Assembly: GCF_027568515.1 (NCBI RefSeq)
Contig: NZ_JANKZF010000005.1
Coordinates: 1-64,000 of the forward strand
Length of the DNA stretch: 64,000 bases
From: Arthrobacter sp. HY1533
Lineage (GTDB): Bacteria; Actinomycetota; Actinomycetes; Actinomycetales; Micrococcaceae
Direction: 5' to 3'
Of the stretch, positions 1-17,061 are shown one piece after another (position 1 is the stretch's first letter; each line of letters starts with the position of its first letter). The notes under the pieces are model-generated. The model made no database searches, was not told where the DNA came from, and saw nothing but the letters and a program-made list of their open reading frames with translations. The position numbers and the translations under genes are program-made.

Positions 1-476
1 ACCGCCTCAAGGACCACCAAATCGACTCACTACCCTCGACAAGAACCGAGAGTACGGCAGAATAGTTCCATCAACGTGGCTCACAATTCACCCCACAAAA
101 CGGCTCACTATTCGACCAGCGCTGACAATGGAATCAATGACAAATCTTCAGCATCTTCTCCTGCATACGATCATCGTCGATGATCTCGACTATTCGCCCC
201 TGCTGCGCATGCCGAATCTCGAATCAGTGCGCGTGCGGCCCGCGCAGGGCATGCGTCCCACGATCGACGAACTCAAATCAGCATTGCCGTGGTCAGACTG
301 ACCCACGAGCGACAGAGGGCTTCTCTAGTCCGATCCACTTCAAAGCGTTCAGATCTCGACTGCACCACATCAGTTCCCTGTAAGACGTGACGCTGGATGC
401 CACCGTCTCCAGGGGCGGCAGGCAACCACCGAGCGTGGATCCCTCGATGTCACCAGGCGTGTGATGAGATAGCCAC
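1..476. other. Gene-free lead-in
   Basis: No convincing coding region is seen here; the short open frames lack family features and ribosome-binding sites. Two similar stretches at 77-89 and 101-113 (GGCTCACAATTC and GGCTCACTATTC) recall terminal repeats of some insertion sequences. A 15-base motif, GTTCCCTGTaaGACG at 373-387, recurs at 1048-1062 on the other side of the first acetyltransferase gene. The segment may be the edge of a mobile or degraded region continuing left of the window. Confidence 0.4.
77..113 (+). repeat. Pair of GGCTCAC-type short repeats, possible IS end remnant
   Basis: TGGCTCACAATTC at 77-89 and CGGCTCACTATTC at 101-113 differ at two positions and have 11 bases between them. 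Spaced GGCTCA-type repeats occur at the ends of some IS21-like elements, but no transposase is present in the window, so this is only a suggestion. Confidence 0.25.
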
Positions 477-1045
477 ATGCTCGGGAAGACAAAATCAGAA
501 GTCTCGATCCGCACCTACACGGTCGGAGATCTGCCTCCGGCTGGCATGATCGAAAAGCTCTACGTGGCAGCTTCAAAACCTCCTCCACTATCTGAACCAC
601 CCGAAGTCGCACAGCTATTCGCCCAACTCTTCGGCTACGCCCGAACCCGAGATGACGTGGTTGGCGTGGGGGCCCTTATCGACGACGAGCTTGTTGGATT
701 CGCCTACGGCCACCCGTGGAAGTGGGAGTCTGAGATTGACTCGTGGTCACGGCAGCTGCAACATTGCCTGGGCGAGGATTCAGCAGACCGCATCGATGAT
801 TCATTCGCCATACTATTGCTGCCGTCCATCCATCTGCGGGCCGGCGCGGGCTCGGCGCCGCACTGCTTGATGCGCTGATGATCGCAGCTGGAGCCACGAC
901 CTACTGGCTTCAGACAACAGACGTCGACACGCCTGCCCAGCGGCTCTACAAGCGTTATGGATACCGGGACCTGGGATACGGGCCGGACGCTCCAGATGGA
1001 CGCCCCGGCTTGGTACTCATCCACGCAGCCCTCAACGTCCGGTAA
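477..1045 (+). pseudogene. GNAT N-acetyltransferase, frameshifted
   Basis: The first frame (477 to about 811) encodes the N-terminal half of a GNAT fold. It then runs into unrelated residues and stops at 878. The natural continuation lies in another frame from about 812 to the TAA at 1043-1045. It reads V-H-P-S-A-G-R-R-G-L-G-A-A-L-L-D, the acetyl-CoA-binding motif A (R/Q-x-x-G-x-G/A), followed by the usual C-terminal Y-x-R-Y-G-Y strand. One base missing or two extra near 808-814 explains the break. The reading after the break is intact for 73 codons, so the lesion is recent, programmed or a sequencing error. The acetyl acceptor is unknown. The ribosome-binding site before ATG 477 is weak. Confidence 0.75.
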
Positions 1046-1126
1046 GCGTTCCCTGTCTGACGCTCGCCGCACGTCGTTATAGTCTCGGAGCATCAGATGT
1101 TCTGCCAATAGCCGACGGATCGATGA

Positions 1127-1474
1127 TCAGTCGTGGACGATCGCTGCATCGAACCAAATGTCCGCGTAGCCGGGGGCAAGCAGAAGCCGTGAACCCGGAG
1201 GCAGGGCAAGATAGTCAATGACTTGCGGACACCAAGTCGCCAAGTGGGAGACATGTAAGGGAACAAAGAAGTCACAGTCATCCGACAGCTCCTCGCCAGC
1301 CCAGATGTACCAACACGTCGTATCTCCCACCGGAGCATGTCGCAGGCCATTGATCGGTACTAAACCATCTTGAACATTCCGGGATATCCCGACTTTCATG
1401 TCCGAAGGACTGGCCAGGGGTTCAGCACCGAAACGTAGACAAACATCGAGCTGCTGGTTAGATATGCCGTTCAT
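1127..1474 (-). CDS. Imm33-like (DUF2185-type) immunity-domain protein
   Basis: This protein of 115 residues has the signature G-D-T-T-C-W-Y-I-W-A-G-E-E in its middle, then F-F-V-P-L-H-V-x-H-L and a Y-L-x-L-P-P-G-S-R-L-L segment near the C-terminus. From memory this matches Imm33/DUF2185-type proteins, which are found as immunity partners of polymorphic toxins or as stand-alone copies. The start at 1474 (MNGISNQQ) is preferred over the longer frame from 1582 because AAGGA lies five bases upstream. No toxin gene lies beside it. It converges with the broken acetyltransferase. The family assignment rests on motif recognition only. Confidence 0.6.
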   Translation of the reverse strand: MNGISNQQLDVCLRFGAEPLASPSDMKVGISRNVQDGLVPINGLRHAPVGDTTCWYIWAGEELSDDCDFFVPLHVSHLATWCPQVIDYLALPPGSRLLLAPGYADIWFDAAIVHD

Positions 1475-1785
1475 CTGATCCTTACGATTCGATACAAATT
1501 CTCGTCTCCATTCCCAAGCTTGCCATGTTGATTTCGACGAGAGGCAGGCTCGGTCCGGTTCCGTGCAGGAGGGCAGGGCCAAACTGACTCTCGACTACCT
1601 GGAGAGTTCTTCTTGGCAGGCATAGGAGCATGCCAAATTAGGCTTGGTTGGCACTGCAACGTAGGACTGTCCCGTAGACCGTTCCCCAAAGGGGCTACGG
1701 TGCCGTGTCGTGTGTCCTTTTTGTTTGACCGCACTGGGGCTTCGGCAATACTGGAAAAGGCTGAGCAAGAGGGGTGAATTGAAGG
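1475..1785. other. Intergenic stretch between divergent Imm33-like and GNAT genes
   Basis: No gene is supported here. The stretch must hold the promoters of both divergent neighbours, but no clear -35/-10 pair stands out. It contains the first copy of the TGTCCCG...GTTCCCC hairpin repeat at 1667-1700. AGAGGGG at 1768-1774 is a plausible ribosome-binding site for the gene starting at 1786. Confidence 0.5.
1667..1700 (+). repeat. Cassette-boundary-like hairpin repeat, copy A
   Basis: The core CTGTCCCGTAGACCGTTCCC is followed by CAAAGGGGCTACGG. Inverted arms ACCGT/ACGGT and CCCC/GGGG fold it into a hairpin. The first 21 bases are identical to copy B at 2346-2366. Copies in the same orientation recur at 3064, 3671 and 4169. 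Confidence 0.75.
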
Positions 1786-2325
1786 ATGACAGGTAGCGGG
1801 TTTGCTGAATACCTACCCAACCGACGTCAAGATGAAGCAGTGTTAGATGGTCCCGTTGACGTCAGGATGGCCACGAGTGGTGACATCGATGCGATACGTG
1901 ACATCGACACCAAAGCGGGTCGCTCACCAGCAGATATAGCGGCCATGGCCACGGCAATTCTTGACGAAAACCGACTGGTTGTTGTCGCCTCTGCCGATGG
2001 CAACATTGTTGGGTGGGGCAAGACCCACTTCTGGTCTTACGCTGATGGACAGGCACCTGGCGGGCACTACTTGGGTGGAGTGACTGTGCTCCCTGAGTTC
2101 AGGCGCCACGGGATAGCCAGGGCCTTGACCCAGGTGAGATTGAACTGGATCTGGGCACGAGCGGACTCGGCCTGGTACATCGTCAACCCATCCAACCAGG
2201 CATCGATCGATCTTCATCGTGAGTGGGGGTTCGCTGAGGTTGCCAGGGCTGCGAAATTTCATACGACCAGCTTCACCGGTGGTGTCGGGTTGCTGTTGCA
2301 AGCGAAACGACCACTAGAAGACTAA
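1786..2325 (+). CDS. GNAT family N-acetyltransferase
   Basis: The 179-residue protein carries a GNAT domain at about residues 23-165. Motif A is visible as G-V-T-V-L-P-E-F-R-R-H-G-I-A (residues 98-111), with R106, R107, H108 and G109 forming the pyrophosphate loop. A later segment with N-P-S-N-Q-A-S-I-D-L-H-R-E-W-G-F is the usual C-terminal part of the CoA site. The acceptor substrate cannot be read from sequence. The gene sits alone between repeat copies A and B, ending 21 bases before copy B. Codon use is less G/C-biased than in the core genes to the right, in keeping with acquired DNA. Confidence 0.85.
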   Translation: MTGSGFAEYLPNRRQDEAVLDGPVDVRMATSGDIDAIRDIDTKAGRSPADIAAMATAILDENRLVVVASADGNIVGWGKTHFWSYADGQAPGGHYLGGVTVLPEFRRHGIARALTQVRLNWIWARADSAWYIVNPSNQASIDLHREWGFAEVARAAKFHTTSFTGGVGLLLQAKRPLED

Positions 2326-2345
2326 GAAGTACGATTCACCTGAAT

Positions 2346-2380
2346 CTGTCCCGTAGACCGTTCCCCCTATGGGGACGGGT
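2346..2380 (+). repeat. Cassette-boundary-like hairpin repeat, copy B
   Basis: CTGTCCCGTAGACCGTTCCC here repeats copy A exactly for 21 bases, then continues CCTATGGGGACGGGT. TCCCC pairs with GGGGA, and CCG pairs with CGG across a small bulge. It lies between two convergent genes and overlaps the stop codon of the minus-strand gene. It could therefore also act as a bidirectional terminator, although no T tract is present. Confidence 0.75.
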
Positions 2381-2924
2381 CATTCTTGCCTGGCGTGCGG
2401 GAACTGTCGATTGCTTCTGCTTCCGCTGCCTCCGCAAGGTCTTCATCGGAAATGCTTAGCATCAGTGTGCTGTCGCGCATGGTGAAGAGATGCATGACTA
2501 TTTCGCGGCCATTTGCCTGCCAGATACTAGGCGGCGCGTCTTCGTCTTCCCACGGCCTTATTGGCTTGCCATAGAGATCCGTCAGCCTGCTCGACACGGC
2601 GTCGTGGCCCAGGCGGGTCGCAGGGGCCTGCGCCTCAGGGAAGGCATATAGGTGGAAGTGGACGCCCAGGAACTTGCCGCGCAAAGAGTCCCACGAGGCA
2701 AATGAAATGCCTGGCACTTCGGTGAGGAGGGTGCATGAGGCCGAGAATGATTCGTCCGAGTCGTGATCCAGGCGTTCTCCATTTTTGAAGTTGAGACGCT
2801 TGAATAGATTCTCGCGTTCCTGATCGGAGCTAGGCCATGTTCCTTCCACCAGCTCCGCCACCAGGGCAGCAACTGTGGCCGGATCGGGAATCAATTCGTT
2901 TGGCGTTTCTATGATCGCGGGCAT
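2367..2924 (-). CDS. Hypothetical protein, 185 aa
   Basis: I do not recognise a family with confidence. The protein is acidic and soluble-looking, without signal peptide or membrane segment. A conserved-looking core (about residues 15-135) includes W-P-S-S-D-Q-E-R-E-N-L-F-K-R-L, a central G-V-H-F-H-L-Y strand and P-P-S-I-W-Q-A-N-G-R-E-I-V-M-H-L-F near the C-terminus. The tail is rich in Ala, Glu and Asp (E-A-A-E-A-E-A). The overall plan resembles small immunity-type or DUF6301-like proteins, but that is a guess. Its stop codon lies inside repeat copy B, and copy B2 lies 140 bases upstream of its start, so it fills one repeat-to-repeat unit on the opposite strand to its neighbours. Confidence 0.6.
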   Translation of the reverse strand: MPAIIETPNELIPDPATVAALVAELVEGTWPSSDQERENLFKRLNFKNGERLDHDSDESFSASCTLLTEVPGISFASWDSLRGKFLGVHFHLYAFPEAQAPATRLGHDAVSSRLTDLYGKPIRPWEDEDAPPSIWQANGREIVMHLFTMRDSTLMLSISDEDLAEAAEAEAIDSSRTPGKNDPSP

Positions 2925-3063
2925 ACGGCGACACTACCGCCGGAACACGCGAAAAGCAGCCTGCTGCCTTCGATCACTCAAGAAATTGATCACTCGTGAC
3001 CCGCTGGCCGGGACCAATCCAGTGCCATGAATTCTCAGCTCATGCGTCAACCAGTCAATTCTG

Positions 3064-3080
3064 TGTCCCACAGAGGGTTC
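3064..3080 (+). repeat. Cassette-boundary-like repeat, diverged copy B2
   Basis: TGTCCCACAGAGGGTTC matches copy C (TGTCCCGCAGGAGGTTC) at 14 of 17 positions and has the same orientation as the other copies. It separates the starts of the divergent genes at 2924 and 3123. Confidence 0.5.
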
Positions 3081-3122
3081 GGCATGCGGGTCAGTCTTCT
3101 TTGATGCCGGTAGGGTCGGAGA

Positions 3123-3665
3123 ATGTCCATCATCTTTGTTCCAATGACACCAGCCGACACTGAAGATATCGTCGGCTTCCTTACCTCAAGCCGTTTCCCG
3201 TTCCATGTTCAGGCAGCCCCACAGGCCGCGGACATCCGGGCGAAGATTGAGAATGGACGTTTCTGGAACGAAGACACCCAAGGCTATTGGGTGGTGAGGG
3301 GCGGACATCGTATCGGCATGGCCGCTCTGGAGGATCTGCGGGAAGATGATTCGCCGGTCTTCGACCTGCGCCTCGACGAGACCCAGCGCGGCCAAGGCGT
3401 GGGAGTCGAAGTGCTTCGTGCGCTCTGCGACCTGGTTTTCGAGACGATGCCGAATACGCTCCGCTTCGAGGGGCACACGCGAGAAGATAACATCGCCATG
3501 CGCAAGACGTTCCTTCGCGCCGGCTTCCTCAAGGAAGCACACTACCGATTGGGATGGCCAACCAACGACGGCGGGCACGTCGCCTCCATCGCCTACTCGA
3601 TCCTGCGCCAAGACTGGGACAACGGAACCCTGACCCATTTCGAATGGGACGACCTCAAGATCTAG
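3123..3665 (+). CDS. GNAT family N-acetyltransferase (RimJ/RimL-like)
   Basis: This 180-residue GNAT protein has motif A as L-D-E-T-Q-R-G-Q-G-V-G-V (R89 to G94 forming the CoA loop). The later N-I-A-M-R-K-T-F-L-R-A-G-F segment is typical of RimJ/RimL-like enzymes, which acetylate ribosomal-protein N-termini or small amines. The true substrate is unknown. GGTAGGG lies about eight bases before ATG 3123. The gene is the only one between repeat copies B2 and C and ends six bases before copy C. It is the third acetyltransferase in 3.2 kb, an enrichment typical of accessory gene arrays. Confidence 0.85.
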   Translation: MSIIFVPMTPADTEDIVGFLTSSRFPFHVQAAPQAADIRAKIENGRFWNEDTQGYWVVRGGHRIGMAALEDLREDDSPVFDLRLDETQRGQGVGVEVLRALCDLVFETMPNTLRFEGHTREDNIAMRKTFLRAGFLKEAHYRLGWPTNDGGHVASIAYSILRQDWDNGTLTHFEWDDLKI

Positions 3666-3670
3666 ACTCC

Positions 3671-3690
3671 TGTCCCGCAGGAGGTTCCTC
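3671..3690 (+). repeat. Cassette-boundary-like hairpin repeat, copy C
   Basis: TGTCCCGCAGGAGGTTCCTC, six bases after the acetyltransferase stop, matches copy A at 14 of 18 positions. It continues into TATGAAGG, as copy B continues into TATGGGG. Confidence 0.6.
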
Positions 3691-3749
3691 TATGAAGGTT
3701 CGTTCGTTGGTCATTTCTATGACCGAGGGGCCTGCCTACATCCGAGCTA

Positions 3750-4061
3750 CTACCCGCCACTGGTTCCACGCATCCGCGCTGGAATATGATCCGGGAAGTC
3801 TTCTTCGCCGATGCCTCCCGCCGCGTAGAACGAATCCAAGAACGAACGGGCCTGCTCAACCAGGGCTTCCCGGGACATCCGTGACGCAGCGTCTGGATCG
3901 TTTGGTGCCGCCTCGCCACCGCGACGCGCGATCGTGAACCCGTAGGTTCCGTCCGCAGGCCCATTGATCCAGGAACAGTGGTAGCTGAGCCTCCCGTCAG
4001 GCTGGTACATCTCGCTGATACGGAGCAGCTCGTCATCAACGGATATTTCGAAATCATCCAT
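3750..4061 (-). CDS. Hypothetical protein, 103 aa
   Basis: I do not recognise this small acidic protein. It has no membrane segment or signal peptide. The N-terminal part (about residues 1-45) looks like a beta-rich segment, M-D-D-F-E-I-S-V-D-D-E-L-L-R-I. The C-terminal half is helical, with R-E-A-L-V-E-Q-A-R-S-F-L-D-S-F-Y. It sits alone between repeat copies C and D in the minus orientation. The ribosome-binding site before 4061 is weak, so the start is uncertain. Confidence 0.5.
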   Translation of the reverse strand: MDDFEISVDDELLRISEMYQPDGRLSYHCSWINGPADGTYGFTIARRGGEAAPNDPDAASRMSREALVEQARSFLDSFYAAGGIGEEDFPDHIPARMRGTSGG

Positions 4062-4168
4062 AGGACGAGCCTAAACCGATTCCCATGACTCGCCCCGTTG
4101 CTGACTCCCATTGGCGCTATTCAGCACCAGAAACTGAGAGACCGCGATGGTCGTGGCATGTCAACCAA

Positions 4169-4198
4169 CGTCCCGTTAAGGGTTCCCCCCTACGGGAC
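4169..4198 (+). repeat. Cassette-boundary-like hairpin repeat, copy D
   Basis: CGTCCCGTTAAGGGTTCCCC matches copy A at 15 of 20 positions. Perfect inverted arms GTCCCGT (4170-4176) and ACGGGAC (4192-4198) enclose a 15-base loop. Confidence 0.65.
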
Positions 4199-4260
4199 AC
4201 CCGACGCCCTGGACACGAATCGAACGGCCTTGCTGGACGTTGCCGTTGGATTCAACGTTT

Positions 4261-4315
4261 TGGTCCGACTGTAGTGCGACGAACTTGATCAAGTTGTCTC
4301 ACTACAGTCGGACCA
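4261..4315. repeat. 55-bp near-perfect palindrome
   Basis: Perfect 16-base arms TGGTCCGACTGTAGTG (4261-4276) and CACTACAGTCGGACCA (4300-4315) flank a centre containing AACTTGATCAAGTT (4282-4295), itself a perfect palindrome. The whole can form a hairpin or cruciform with a short internal mismatch. There is no T tract on either side, so a simple terminator is unlikely; a recombination site, operator or remnant element end is possible. Confidence 0.85.
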
Positions 4316-4366
4316 TTCCATCAGATCTCGCGCTTTTCGTGGTCCAACTTAGATGAGGCGGGACAC

Positions 4367-4729
4367 TCAAGACAGGCAGAGGCAGAAGGGGTGTCCGGCC
4401 GGGTCCAGGAAGACCCGGAACGTGGCACCGGGCTGGTGCTCGGCCTTGGCCGCGCCCAGCCGGATCACCTCGGCCTCGCCGTCGTCCAGGCTGTCCACCA
4501 CCACGTCCAGGTGCATTTGCTGCGGGTGCTTCTGGCCCGGCCAGACAGGTGCCCGGTAGCCGGAATCCACCTGCTGGAAGGAAATGCAGTTGCTGCCATC
4601 GTCGGGCCGGATGTCCACCCAGCCGTCCTCCGCGGTGACCTCCCAACCGAGCATGGCAGCGTAAAACTCCGCCAGCCGGGCCGCGTCGGGGCAGTCGATG
4701 ACAAATCCGGGATTGCGTGCAATGGCCAT
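4367..4729 (-). CDS. VOC family (glyoxalase-like) protein
   Basis: This 120-residue single-domain protein shows the paired beta-alpha-beta-beta-beta layout of the vicinal-oxygen-chelate superfamily. V-I-D-C-P-D-A-A-R-L-A-E-F-Y-A-A-M-L-G-W-E-V opens the first module, and M-H-L-D-V-V-V-D-S-L-D-D-G opens the second. The second ends in F-L-D-P-A-G-H-P-F-C-L. His in the second module is a likely metal ligand. Members include glyoxalases, dioxygenases and antibiotic-binding proteins; the substrate here cannot be assigned. The next upstream gene on the same strand ends nine bases before its start, so the two are probably co-transcribed. Confidence 0.85.
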   Translation of the reverse strand: MAIARNPGFVIDCPDAARLAEFYAAMLGWEVTAEDGWVDIRPDDGSNCISFQQVDSGYRAPVWPGQKHPQQMHLDVVVDSLDDGEAEVIRLGAAKAEHQPGATFRVFLDPAGHPFCLCLS

Positions 4730-7454: not shown

Positions 7455-8756
7455 CTAGGCCCGCACCACGGGCAGGTCCTTCCAGTCTGTGGTGTACTTC
7501 GGCGAGGAGTGCTCCCGCTTCATGGACCATTGCGGGGCCTGCGCCAGCCCGCCCACCCCGATGCCGATGGCTGTGCTGCCGAATTTGCTGCGGACCTGGC
7601 CCATGACGCCGCCCACGTCGGGCTGGCCGTTGTCGGTGCCGAAGACGTCAAGCATGCCGGAGCCGGAGGCTGGTTCCAGCCCGCTGAACATGACCCCGGC
7701 GCGCAGGTAGGAGGCACCGGCCACGGCACTCTGCCTGATGGCGGCCACCGCGGCACGCACCAGCACGATGGGGTCTTGGGTGGGCGATGCGAAGCGGATC
7801 GTGGCGGCCGGGAAGCTCCCCTCCCCCGCCGTGAAGTGGCTGGTGCCGGCCGTGACTGTCATGATCGAGGCGCGCAGGCCTTCTTCGTTGAGCCGGGCGG
7901 CGCCGCGCTGGGCGTAGACGGCCATGACCTCTTCCATGCCCTCCAGCGTGGTGACGGGTTCGGAGAAGCTGCGCGAGAACATGAGCTGCTGCTTGTCCAC
8001 CCGTTCCTCCACGTGCGGGATGCATTCGGTGCCGTTGAGTTCCATGACGGTGCGCTGGAGCACCACGGAGAACTTCTTGCGGATCAGGGCAGGGTCGGCT
8101 GCCTTGAGGTCGGCGATCGTGTCGATGCCCATCATTTTCAGCCGGTCGGCGGTTTTCCCGCCAACACCCCACAGCCCAGAGGCCGGCACGCGCGCCTGGA
8201 TGCCGTCCACGTGCCCGGCGGGCATGGCCTCGAGTGCGCAGACGCCGCCAAGCCCTGGGTTTTGCTTGGCGATCCGGTTGGCGAACTTGGCCAGCGTCTT
8301 GGTTTGGGCCACGCCAACGCACACGGGCACGCCGACGTGGCGCATCACGGCGGCGCGGATGTCCCGCCCGGCGGCCTGCAGCTGGGCGGAGTCCCCCACG
8401 AGCCCCACAAAGGATTCGTCAATGGAGTAGACCTCCTGCCAGGTGCCGTAGCGGCCCACCACCTCCATGACCCGGGCGCTCATGTCCCCGTACAGCTCGT
8501 AGTTGCTGGAGCGTGCCACAAGCCCCCATGCCTTGGCCTGCGACTGGACCTGGAACCACGGGGCGCCGGTTGCGATGCCCAGCGCCTTGGCCTCGGCCGA
8601 GCGGGCCACCACGCAACCGTCATTGTTGGAAAGGACGACGACGGGACGCCCTTCCAGCCTTGGGTCAAAGACCCGCTCGCAGGAGACATAGAAGTTGTTG
8701 ACATCCACCAGGGCGATCCGGCTGTTGTCGGTGGGGTTCGCTGTTGCACCGTCCAT
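7455..8756 (-). CDS. umuC: Y-family DNA polymerase V catalytic subunit-like UmuC
   Basis: The 433-residue protein is a Y-family translesion polymerase. The first metal-binding motif is [10 protein letters not shown] (residues 18-27) and the second is Y-S-I-D-E-S (110-115) with the catalytic D113-E114 pair. A helix-hairpin-helix with L-W-G-V-G-G-K-T-A follows, then a little-finger domain and an UmuC-type C-terminal extension. Start 8756 is chosen because GGGAGGAGG lies about nine bases upstream. A LexA-like site (8786-8797) lies just before it, suggesting SOS control. Its UmuD-like partner is not adjacent but about 3 kb away (11837-12241). Confidence 0.92.
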
Positions 8757-15738: not shown

Positions 15739-17061
15739 CTAGGAAAGGTTCCCCACCGACGGGTACAGGGGGTGGGCGGCGGCCAGGGCCTGCACGCGTG
15801 CGCGCAATCCCGCCAGATCCGCCGCGGCGTCCGTGATGAGCGCCTCGGCAATGATGTCTGCCACTTCGGCAAACGCCGCCTCGCCGAAACCGCGGGTGGC
15901 CAGGGCAGGGGTTCCAATTCGCAGGCCTGAGGTCACCATGGGCGGACGGGGATCGAACGGCACGGCGTTGCGGTTGACGGTGATGTCAATCGCGGCGAGG
16001 CGGTCCTCTGCCTCCTGGCCGTTGAGCTCGCAATTGCGAAGATCAACCAGCACCAGGTGGACGTCGGTGCCGCCGGAAATCACGGAGATTCCCTTGGCTG
16101 CGACATCGGGCTGGATCAGGCGTTCGGCCAGAATCCGGGCACCTGCCAGGACGCGTTCCTGGCGCTCCTTGAACTCCGGTGAAGCCGCAATCTTGAAGGC
16201 CACTGCCTTGCCGGCAATCACGTGCTCCAGCGGGCCACCCTGCTGGCCGGGGAAGACGGCCGAGTTGATCTTCTTGGCCACGGCTTCGTCGTTGCTCAAG
16301 ATGATGCCGCCGCGGGGGCCGGCCAGGGTCTTGTGCGTGGTGGAGGTGGTCACGTGGGCGTGCTGCACCGGTGAGGGGTGCAGGCCCGCGGCCACGAGTC
16401 CGGCAAAGTGGGCCATGTCCACCATGAGGTAGGCACCCACCAGATCCGCGATGCGGCGGAATTCGGCGAAGTCCAGCTGGCGGGCATAGGCCGACCATCC
16501 GGCAACGATCAACGCCGGCTTGTGTTCCAGTGCCAGCCGCTCAATCTCGGCCATGTCAACCTGGTGGGTGTCTTCGCGAACCTGGTACGGGACCACGTTG
16601 TAGAGCTTGCCGGAGAAGTTGATCTTCATGCCGTGCGTCAGGTGTCCGCCATGGGCCAGGTTCAGGCCCATGATGGTGTCGCCCGGCTTGATGAGCGCGT
16701 GCATGACCGATGCATTGGCCTGTGCGCCTGAGTGCGGCTGAACGTTGGCGTACGCGGCGCCGAACAGGTCCTTGACGCGGTCAATGGCCAGCTGTTCGAT
16801 GACATCGACGTGCTCGCAACCACCGTAGTAGCGGCGGCCCGGGTAGCCCTCTGCGTACTTGTTGGTCAGGACCGAACCCTGGGCCTGCATGACTGCGGCA
16901 GCCGTGTGGTTCTCAGAGGCGATCATTTCCAGGCCGGTGCGCTGGCGATCCAGTTCGGCGTCAATCGCGACGGCCACTTCGGGGTCCAATGCGGAAAGCT
17001 GGGCATCGAGGCTCGGCGAGACCACCTGGACGTAGTCCACGGCGGAATCTACGCCGCTCAC
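15739..17061 (-). CDS. glyA: Serine hydroxymethyltransferase
   Basis: The 440-residue PLP enzyme interconverts serine and glycine with THF and methylene-THF. [13 protein letters not shown] lies at residues 69-81, and the PLP lysine is K244 in [15 protein letters not shown]. The start is a GTG overlapping the gcvH stop by four bases (GTGA). Placement inside a glycine-cleavage operon suggests this copy works with GCS to turn two glycines into serine. Confidence 0.96.

What the first reader, a model, noticed from the sequence alone, without database searches (positions are those of the whole stretch)
1667..4198. Cassette-like array: single genes separated by same-direction hairpin repeats
Five copies of a TGTCCCG(T/C)AG...GTTCC(C) repeat (1667, 2346, 3064, 3671, 4169) all face the same way. 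They bound four units of about 680, 720, 610 and 500 bases, each holding exactly one small gene in alternating strand order (GNAT, unknown, GNAT, unknown). Two copies are identical for 21 bases, and most can form hairpins. This is how integron gene cassettes look, and the gene content (acetyltransferases, an immunity-like protein just outside) is typical cassette cargo, but the repeat is not a classic attC (I find no GTTRRRY/RYYYAAC pair). It may be a new kind of cassette boundary or a REP-like element preferring gene ends. The left part (373 and 1048) shows a different shared motif, GTTCCCTGTNNGACG, around the first gene.
Basis: partly seen in the sequence, partly recalled or inferred. Interest (0 to 1): 0.75.

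Follow-up and report, generated by a model that had tools for sequence, protein, structure and literature searches.

The report
Integron-like cassettes using serine-resolvase sites
The window begins with part of an array of swappable single-gene cassettes in an Arthrobacter-like bacterium, which look and reshuffle like integron cassettes but are joined at sites of the kind cut by a different enzyme family (serine resolvases of Tn3 transposons), so bacteria may have a second way of collecting genes one by one.

Summary
The repeat is real, not chance, and larger than the window. Same-direction copies of GTCCCGYAG-NNS-GTTCC-N(C)TRCGGGA form arrays in this genome (contigs C16, C35, C43) and in other genomes of its genus (Arthrobacter). 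Units between copies are swapped as blocks: each window unit from 1048 on recurs in other species beside other neighbours. Across site pairs that share one flank only, identity changes inside GTTCC, the centre of the palindrome, so the repeat is a crossover site. It is not attC: no distal arms, and no integron integrase over cut-off in 23 genomes. In relatives, several arrays start at a res-like site beside a small serine resolvase (two lineages) and run away from it. A Brevibacterium and another Arthrobacter carry the same Tn3-family transposon with unrelated DNA at res site I; plain transposons of this clade often have the same GTTC centre. The window genome keeps two array heads but no serine recombinase: an orphan array. 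Best reading: a serine-resolvase counterpart of the integron. Exchange is shown by sequence; the enzyme's role is inferred from linkage and site likeness. The differing centre of head sites is unexplained.

The parts
373..398 (+). weak, decayed crossover site (right half GTTCCCTGTAAGACG only)
   Evidence: shares GTTCCCTGTNNGACG with 1048; left half not recognisable
399..1047 (+). unit with a GNAT-like gene lying in two frames (477-878 and 878-1045)
   Evidence: no Pfam match for the first ORF; GNAT reading of the second is by eye
1037..1062 (+). crossover site, degenerate (GTCCGGTAAGC-GTTCC-CTGTCTGACG)
   Evidence: near the left end of the homologous blocks 1048-1685 and 1030-1684 in other genomes
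1048..1685 (+). cassette, Imm33-like gene 1127-1582 on -
   Evidence: Pfam PF24719 2.9e-37; homologous blocks in G014, G017, G006 (two places) 81-83%; in G017 it abuts tnpA of a Tn3-family transposon
1669..1696 (+). crossover site A
1686..2364 (+). cassette, GNAT gene 1786-2325 on +
   Evidence: Pfam PF00583; block 1668-2375 94.5% to G014
2348..2376 (+). crossover site A
   Evidence: left flank 98% to a G014 site whose right side is unrelated
2365..3081 (+). cassette, unknown gene 2367-2924 on -
   Evidence: homologous blocks in G009, G016 (two places), G006, G007, G020, 74-84%, some shorter than the unit
3065..3092 (+). crossover site A (two mismatches)
   Evidence: lies where the blocks 2344-3080 (G009) and 3077-3688 (G015) meet
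3082..3688 (+). cassette, GNAT gene 3123-3665 on +
   Evidence: Pfam PF13302; block 3077-3688 84% to G015
3672..3699 (+). crossover site A
3689..4186 (+). cassette, unknown gene 3750-4061 on -
   Evidence: block 3708-4185 81% to G014
4170..4199 (+). last crossover site A of the array (tail)
4340..4367 (-). inverted flank sequence AGTGTCCCGCCTCATCTAAGTTGGACCA; its partner lies outside the C35 array head
   Evidence: window 4366-, C35 8334-; the search pattern was made from these two

Best explanation
The region is the distal end of an integron-like gene-cassette array whose joints are site-I-type crossover sites of a small serine resolvase. Each cassette starts with TTCC-N(C)TRCGGGA (a right half-site), carries most often one gene in either direction, and ends with GTCCCGYAG-NNS-G (a strong left half-site). 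A resolvase of the Tn3/TnpR type, coded beside a res-like head site in relatives, would bind the inverted half-sites, cut at the central dinucleotide within GTTCC, and excise or insert cassettes; the non-palindromic centre would keep cassettes in one orientation. The platform would derive from the res site between tnpR and tnpA of Tn3-family transposons. In the window genome the resolvase gene is missing, leaving orphan arrays with their heads. SHOWN by sequence: arrays, block exchange, breakpoint inside GTTCC, head-plus-resolvase polarity in relatives, foreign DNA at res site I of a Tn3-family transposon. INFERRED: that the resolvase catalyses the exchange, circular intermediates, central-dinucleotide cutting, loss of the gene in the window genome.
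For: Array and direction: 13 exact hits of the loose pattern in the genome, 10 of them in three co-directional clusters (C16 -, C35 -, C43 +). Exact GTCCCGYAGNNNGTTCC: 82 hits against 11 for the reversed pattern in the 23 genus genomes (my sums). In 50 fetched loci 185 neighbouring site pairs within 4 kb face the same way and 33 the opposite way. Exchange: 33 site pairs share the left flank only and 32 the right flank only (6 of the 32 are head sites read on the other strand); left-shared pairs drop to background after GTTCC, right-shared ones rise at it (first seen). Each window unit from 1048 on has block homologues in other genomes, and no match spans two units. 15 shared-unit clusters after removing 7 caused by overlapping loci; e.g. 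cluster 1 lies in three and cluster 0 in four places with different neighbours. Enzyme: 17 clade-1 resolvase rows have 24 A sites pointing away in the 8 kb upstream (in 10 of 17) and none downstream; six clade-2 rows with a head have 25 pointing away downstream and none upstream; of 14 resolvases outside both clades 9 have no site on either side and five show no common polarity (clades 100/100). PF00239 + HTH_7. Transposon resolvases of this clade often have a site I with GTTC centre, e.g. GTGTCCGGTGAGGGTTCCNCTTACGGG (28 of 78 loci by a crude regex). L143 (Brevibacterium) and L145 (Arthrobacter) carry one Tn3-family transposon (tnpA side 89.7%, tnpR-res side 99.4%) with 926 and 3725 bp between res head and tnpA that show no blastn match, and Tn3-like end repeats. 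A homologue of the window's Imm33 cassette abuts the same tnpA in G017.
Against: No reaction has been seen: no reads, circles or mutants. The window genome has no PF00239 protein and no P0001 relative. Known Tn3-type resolvases need accessory sites II and III (established knowledge), which most A sites lack. Head sites (B, centre GGACC; Cryobacterium GTCC) differ at the centre from A sites (GTTCC), so a simple head x A exchange is not explained. With one mismatch allowed the pattern is not enriched genome-wide: 284 hits against 306 for the reversed control in 23 genomes (my sums), and 72 against 150 for the loose pattern in G000; the signal is in exact copies, clustering and direction. Many loci were fetched because they had sites. 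Of nine clade-1 genes fetched for the protein (L119-L123, L207-L209, L211; two with little upstream sequence) only two have an outward A site within 8 kb, though five (L119, L121, L207, L209, L211) have a head B. In the 80-locus scan only 10 loci hold two or more A sites at 16 bits. No resolvase was found in the 26 kb around the G017 transposon. Genes inside units face both ways (83 with, 62 against). Site pairs are not independent.
Confidence: 0.76

Rival explanations
1. The array is a degenerate ordinary integron or CALIN, with odd attC sites moved by a tyrosine integrase (IntI or Xer) acting in trans.
For: Overall design (mostly single-gene units, one direction, GTT at the joint) matches integrons; tyrosine recombinases (PF00589) are in 23 of 23 genus genomes, and a 156-aa fragment lies about 5 kb from an array in G006 (C1:706928).
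Against: No integron integrase over the cut-off in 23 of 23 genus genomes (none of the 14 control genomes passes it either, so there was no positive control). No second pair of arms upstream of 92 sites. None of the listed tyrosine recombinases of G000, G014, G016 and G022 lies beside the arrays compared (by coordinates; the list is cut). The L003 integrase of G000 has close relatives in only 2 of 22 other genus genomes.
Confidence: 0.06
2. Res-like site I copies are only targets or scars: another enzyme (a transposase or 'res hunter') inserts genes there, and the resolvase is a passenger from the old transposon.
For: Tn5053-family transposons are known to target res sites (title seen in the reference list of PMC7157771). 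Tn3 tnpA-like ORFs lie in 5 of 44 loci. The array flanks in G000 carry an inverted 28-bp pair of another kind.
Against: Breakpoints lie at the palindrome centre, and left and right halves are exchanged independently, as in conservative site-specific recombination. No transposase family appears among those shown for the 106 unit proteins scanned (first 25 of 66 families).
Confidence: 0.13
3. REP-like or terminator-like intergenic repeats that happen to flank genes, with block exchange by homologous recombination.
For: Sites lie at gene ends and can fold; single matches also occur outside the arrays (3 of 13 exact).
Against: Clustered and co-directional. About 27 bp is short for frequent homologous exchange between arrays whose other flanks are unrelated, and the breakpoints sit in one 5-bp stretch.
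Confidence: 0.03

Closest known systems
Integron / chromosomal superintegron gene-cassette arrays (IntI, attI, attC) and CALINs (PMC8618304, passages seen)
   Same: Tandem units of mixed function with mostly one gene, one site per unit, sites in one direction, recombinase gene at the head of the array beside a special site, orphan arrays, crossover at a GTT (the GTT of attC is recalled)
   Different: Serine resolvase instead of tyrosine IntI; short inverted half-sites instead of folded attC; head resembling a Tn3 res site; unit genes face both ways
Tn3-family transposons with TnpR-res; exchange of toxin-antitoxin modules at res site I (PMC7157771, passages seen)
   Same: Same enzyme family, res order III-II-I from tnpR, foreign genes next to site I, exchange at site I
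   Different: There one module per transposon; here serial arrays of independent cassettes, each ending in its own site-I half, mostly without tnpA and often without tnpR
XerC/XerD pdif modules and SCCmec/ccr cassettes (recalled)
   Same: Mobile units bounded by core sites of a site-specific recombinase
   Different: pdif uses tyrosine recombinases and AT-rich dif-like sites; SCC uses large serine recombinases and few, large cassettes

Membership tests
Integron | intI, an integron-type tyrosine integrase | tested here: not met
   TIGR02249: 0 of 23 genus genomes over the cut-off (no control genome passes either)
Integron | attC with paired R''/L'' and L'/R' boxes, GTTRRRY end | tested here: not met
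   no complementary arm enriched upstream in 92 sites; centre is GTTCC, not GTTRRRY
Integron | array of mobile units, usually one ORF each | tested here: met
   85 of 150 units have one main ORF, 42 have two
Integron | cassettes exist as circles inserted at the head site | not testable with these tools
   needs reads or PCR
Tn3-family resolvase system (TnpR-res) | serine resolvase with catalytic domain and HTH | tested here: met
   PF00239 and PF02796 in the five head-linked proteins scanned, from relatives; absent in the window genome
Tn3-family resolvase system (TnpR-res) | res with site III next to tnpR and crossover site I distal | tested here: met
   by sequence reading only, upstream of tnpR in relatives and in plain transposons; heads without tnpR in G000; binding not tested
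Tn3-family transposon | tnpA and terminal repeats of GGGG...TAA type | tested here: inconclusive
   present in L143 and L145 and one end in L222 and L114; tnpA-like ORFs in 5 of 44 loci scanned; not seen in the window array
REP / BIME elements | single copies scattered at core-gene ends | tested here: not met
   10 of 13 exact copies clustered and co-directional; block exchange
Xer pdif modules | dif-like XerC/XerD binding arms | not tested
   sequence is GC-rich and unlike dif as recalled; no model was run

The most novel reading that the evidence does not exclude
A second, independently evolved integron-type system ('serine integron'): Tn3 res sites turned into gene-capture platforms that build genus-wide arrays of mostly one-gene cassettes, with at least two resolvase lineages in Arthrobacter and a third head variant in Cryobacterium, and a pool of cassettes shared among species, chromosomes, plasmids and transposons.
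Probability: 0.67. Interest if true: 0.93.

Novelty: categorically new. Interest (0 to 1): 0.85.

Why it matters
Integrons are the textbook device for collecting single genes, and those known to me use a tyrosine integrase and folded attC sites. A cassette system on serine-resolvase sites would show that the same design arose from a different enzyme family, would explain variable islands in Arthrobacter and its relatives, and would open a new cassette pool (acetyltransferases, immunity-like, defence-like, unknown genes) to study. It is testable with simple deletion and circle assays. The components (TnpR, res, exchange at res site I) are known; the array system built from them was not found in the ten literature searches made (listings only, open-access library, no preprints), so priority is not proven.

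Tried and rejected
attC-like outer arms upstream of the site: no enrichment in 92 sites. Tyrosine recombinases: G000 has five, two of them XerC/XerD by eye; the unusual one on C3 (L003) has relatives of 48-54% identity in 2 of 22 other genus genomes, G018 and G013. Integron integrase model: below cut-off in 23 of 23. Plasmid look-up with a G014 array: 5 records, each matching one gene. RNAalifold on 21 long elements: no consensus structure.

Long elements (A, then B 80-82 bp on in most) and the different centre of head sites were examined and are left unexplained; by my hand count in L107 the A of these elements sits where site II sits in heads. A link between centre type and arrays was looked for among 78 of 80 loci and is only suggestive: 6 of 17 AC/GT heads, 2 of 28 TT heads and 3 of 33 unclassified ones have an outward A site within 9 kb (crude regex, at least one misread label, many contigs short). 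The covariance-model tools were not used; a 27-position weight matrix served instead (271 hits at 12 bits against 10 in reversed sequence; it was built from the loci it was scored on).

Full report
What is there. The window is the first 64 kb of a 342-kb contig (C43) of a 4.3-Mb genome in 68 contigs. Its first 4.2 kb hold site copies at 1037 (weak), 1669, 2348, 3065, 3672 and 4170, and a decayed one at 373. The genus appears to be Arthrobacter: G006 contigs C1 and C2 have the lengths of two plasmids of Arthrobacter sp. ERGS1:01 (754,192 and 152,177), G022:C15 has the length of a contig of Arthrobacter sp. H35-MC1, and G015:C32 that of one of A. cryoconiti.

Not local. The loose pattern finds 13 exact places in the own genome; ten lie in three co-directional clusters: C16 120.7-140.3 kb (four, minus), C35 (two, minus) and C43 (four, plus). 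The exact form GTCCCGYAGNNNGTTCC occurs in 22 of 23 genomes of the genus (82 hits against 11 for the reversed pattern, my sums) and in 3 of 15 others of the family and order (3 against 2). A stricter form occurs in 44 of 395 genomes of the family, 16 of them among the 23 of the genus (78 hits against 8 control hits, my count). With one mismatch allowed there is no genome-wide excess: 284 against 306 in the 23 genomes and, for the loose pattern, 72 against 150 in G000. So the case rests on exact copies, clustering, direction and exchange. A weight matrix on the fetched loci gives 271 hits against 10 in reversed sequence (overlapping loci counted twice, matrix built from the same loci).

A crossover site. 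Of 250 non-identical site-A windows, 33 pairs share 80% or more of the left 60 bp but under 50% on the right, 32 the reverse, and 3 share both. Six of the 32 are head sites B read on the other strand, and one site can enter several pairs. In left-shared pairs identity stays high through position 16 (0.88) and falls to background at 17 (0.39 against 0.33). In right-shared pairs it is only somewhat above background at positions 9-11 (0.53-0.69 against 0.33-0.49) and high from 17 on (0.84 and more); positions 12-16 are conserved in all. The change therefore lies within GTTCC, the centre of the two inverted half-sites. For site B (112 windows) 49 pairs share the left side only and 5 the right. Blocks: window 1048-1685, 1668-2375, 2344-3080, 3077-3688 and 3708-4185 are the longest matches of each unit in other genomes (81-95%); their ends fall at or within the sites, except that the last starts 19 bases inside its unit; other matches are shorter or weaker (down to 74%). 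Units keep their content but not their neighbours: 22 clusters of shared units, 7 of them only overlapping loci, leaving 15 (51 of 185 units are in clusters, overlaps included). Unit length has a median of 1086 bp. Of 150 units (three overlapping loci dropped, 250-2500 bp only), 85 have one main ORF, 42 two, 18 three or four, 5 none; the main ORF runs with the array in 83 and against it in 62 (own crude ORF caller). Of 145 such ORFs I scanned 106: 11 match Acetyltransf_1, 3 APH, 3 Clp_N, 3 Methyltransf_11 (first 25 of 66 families shown). PADLOC shows single matches to AbiD, PDC-S02 and PD_DExK models and 3 to mad2 (first 25 of 30 shown).

The enzyme. None of the listed tyrosine recombinases of G000, G014, G016 and G022 lies beside the arrays I compared (list cut), though a 156-aa fragment lies about 5 kb from a G006 array. 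No integron integrase passes its cut-off in 23 genomes. A 198-aa resolvase (P0001) sits divergently at the start of the G011 array. Near-full-length relatives (59-81%) lie in 14 other genus genomes by my reading, several near sites; G000 has none. In front of the start codon is a res-like region, read by eye: outer half-sites, then site B (GTCCGGTGAGGGACCGGCTTGCGGGAC), then the array. A second lineage, 34-38% identical to P0001, lies co-directionally with B after its stop codon. The head-linked proteins form two separate groups with 100/100 support (38 rows). In the polarity test (40 resolvase rows) the outward sites of clade 1 are upstream (24 in 10 of 17 rows; 0 downstream), and those of the six clade-2 genes with a head are downstream (25; 0 upstream). 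Three further clade-2 rows without a head have 1, 0 and 0. Inward hits also occur (8 in clade 1, 4 in clade 2); in the five clade-1 loci that I could compare (L074, L114, L115, L116, L120) they are site B on the other strand. Of 14 rows outside both clades, 9 have no site, and five, lying in or near arrays, show no common polarity. Selection caveat: most of these neighbourhoods were fetched because sites were already known there; of nine clade-1 genes fetched for the protein, two have an outward A site and five a head B. L210 (G019), also fetched, gave no row (its frame holds a stop).

The origin. The same TnpR clade occurs across Actinomycetota, mostly without arrays: of the best 80 of 474 places ten hold two or more A sites at 16 bits. 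The region before tnpR reads like a Tn3 res, and in 28 of 78 loci a crude regex finds a site I with GTTC centre, for example GTGTCCGGTGAGG-GTTCC-NCTTACGGG: the centre of the array sites. L143 (Brevibacterium aurantiacum) and L145 (Arthrobacter sp. MYb229) carry one transposon with tnpA and Tn3-like ends; between the head B and the A site after tnpA they hold 926 and 3725 bp without a blastn match to each other at 1e-10. In G017 a homologue of the window's Imm33 cassette (83%) is the last unit before the same tnpA (93% to L145); no resolvase was found in the 26 kb fetched there. Published work describes exchange of toxin-antitoxin modules between Tn3 transposons at a dinucleotide of res site I, with tnpR next to site III (PMC7157771, passages seen). 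That is the nearest precedent.

The window genome. It has no PF00239 protein (the control rings in 10 of 14 genomes) but keeps two heads: L037:15851 on C16 and L038:8127 on C35, each with outer half-sites (by eye). C35 (minus) and C43 (plus) can be read as the two ends of one array; a 28-bp sequence stands inverted outside the C35 head (8334-) and outside the window tail (4366-). So the window array is an orphan end, comparable to a CALIN (term from PMC8618304, passages seen).

What remains open. Why head sites have the centre GGACC (Cryobacterium GTCC) while array sites have GTTCC; what the 80-bp A-to-B elements inside arrays are; whether A sites without accessory sites can be recombined; and whether circles exist. 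I rate cassette exchange at the site as shown, the resolvase as the probable but unproven agent, and the comparison with integrons as one of function, not membership.

Noticed in passing
window 4340-4367 and L038 (C35) about 8307-8335; also L075 1189 and 5921: A 28-bp sequence (AGTGTYCCGYCTCATCTAAGKTGRACCA) flanks the array on both sides in inverted orientation and recurs as an inverted pair about 4.7 kb apart in G013 (one copy with 5 mismatches): perhaps ends of another mobile element that carries arrays.
   Followed up: partly
window 4261-4315: Near-perfect hairpin with 20-bp arms just outside the array tail (z -8.0 for 4255-4325); similar sequence follows an array tail in G016 (L066 11639-11806).
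   Followed up: partly
L074 10306-10728 and 13484-13906 (G011): The same 126-aa gene unit occurs twice, right flanks 100% identical, left flanks different: a duplicated cassette.
   Followed up: no
L176, L177, L190, L193 (Cryobacterium): Array-type sites in loci with a related resolvase whose site I has a GTCC centre; arrays may extend to Microbacteriaceae.
   Followed up: partly
A-to-B long elements, e.g. L069 15929/16011, L076 8530/8610: About 80-bp gene-less modules between an A and a B site, repeated in several genomes before different sequence.
   Followed up: partly
L037 about 15780-15800: Run of about 20 G right after the C16 array head; assembly there may be unsure.
   Followed up: no
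window 477-1045: First gene of the window looks like a GNAT lying in two frames, possibly decayed.
   Followed up: no
G006:C1:706928-707137: A 156-aa tyrosine-recombinase-like frame about 5 kb from an array.
   Followed up: no
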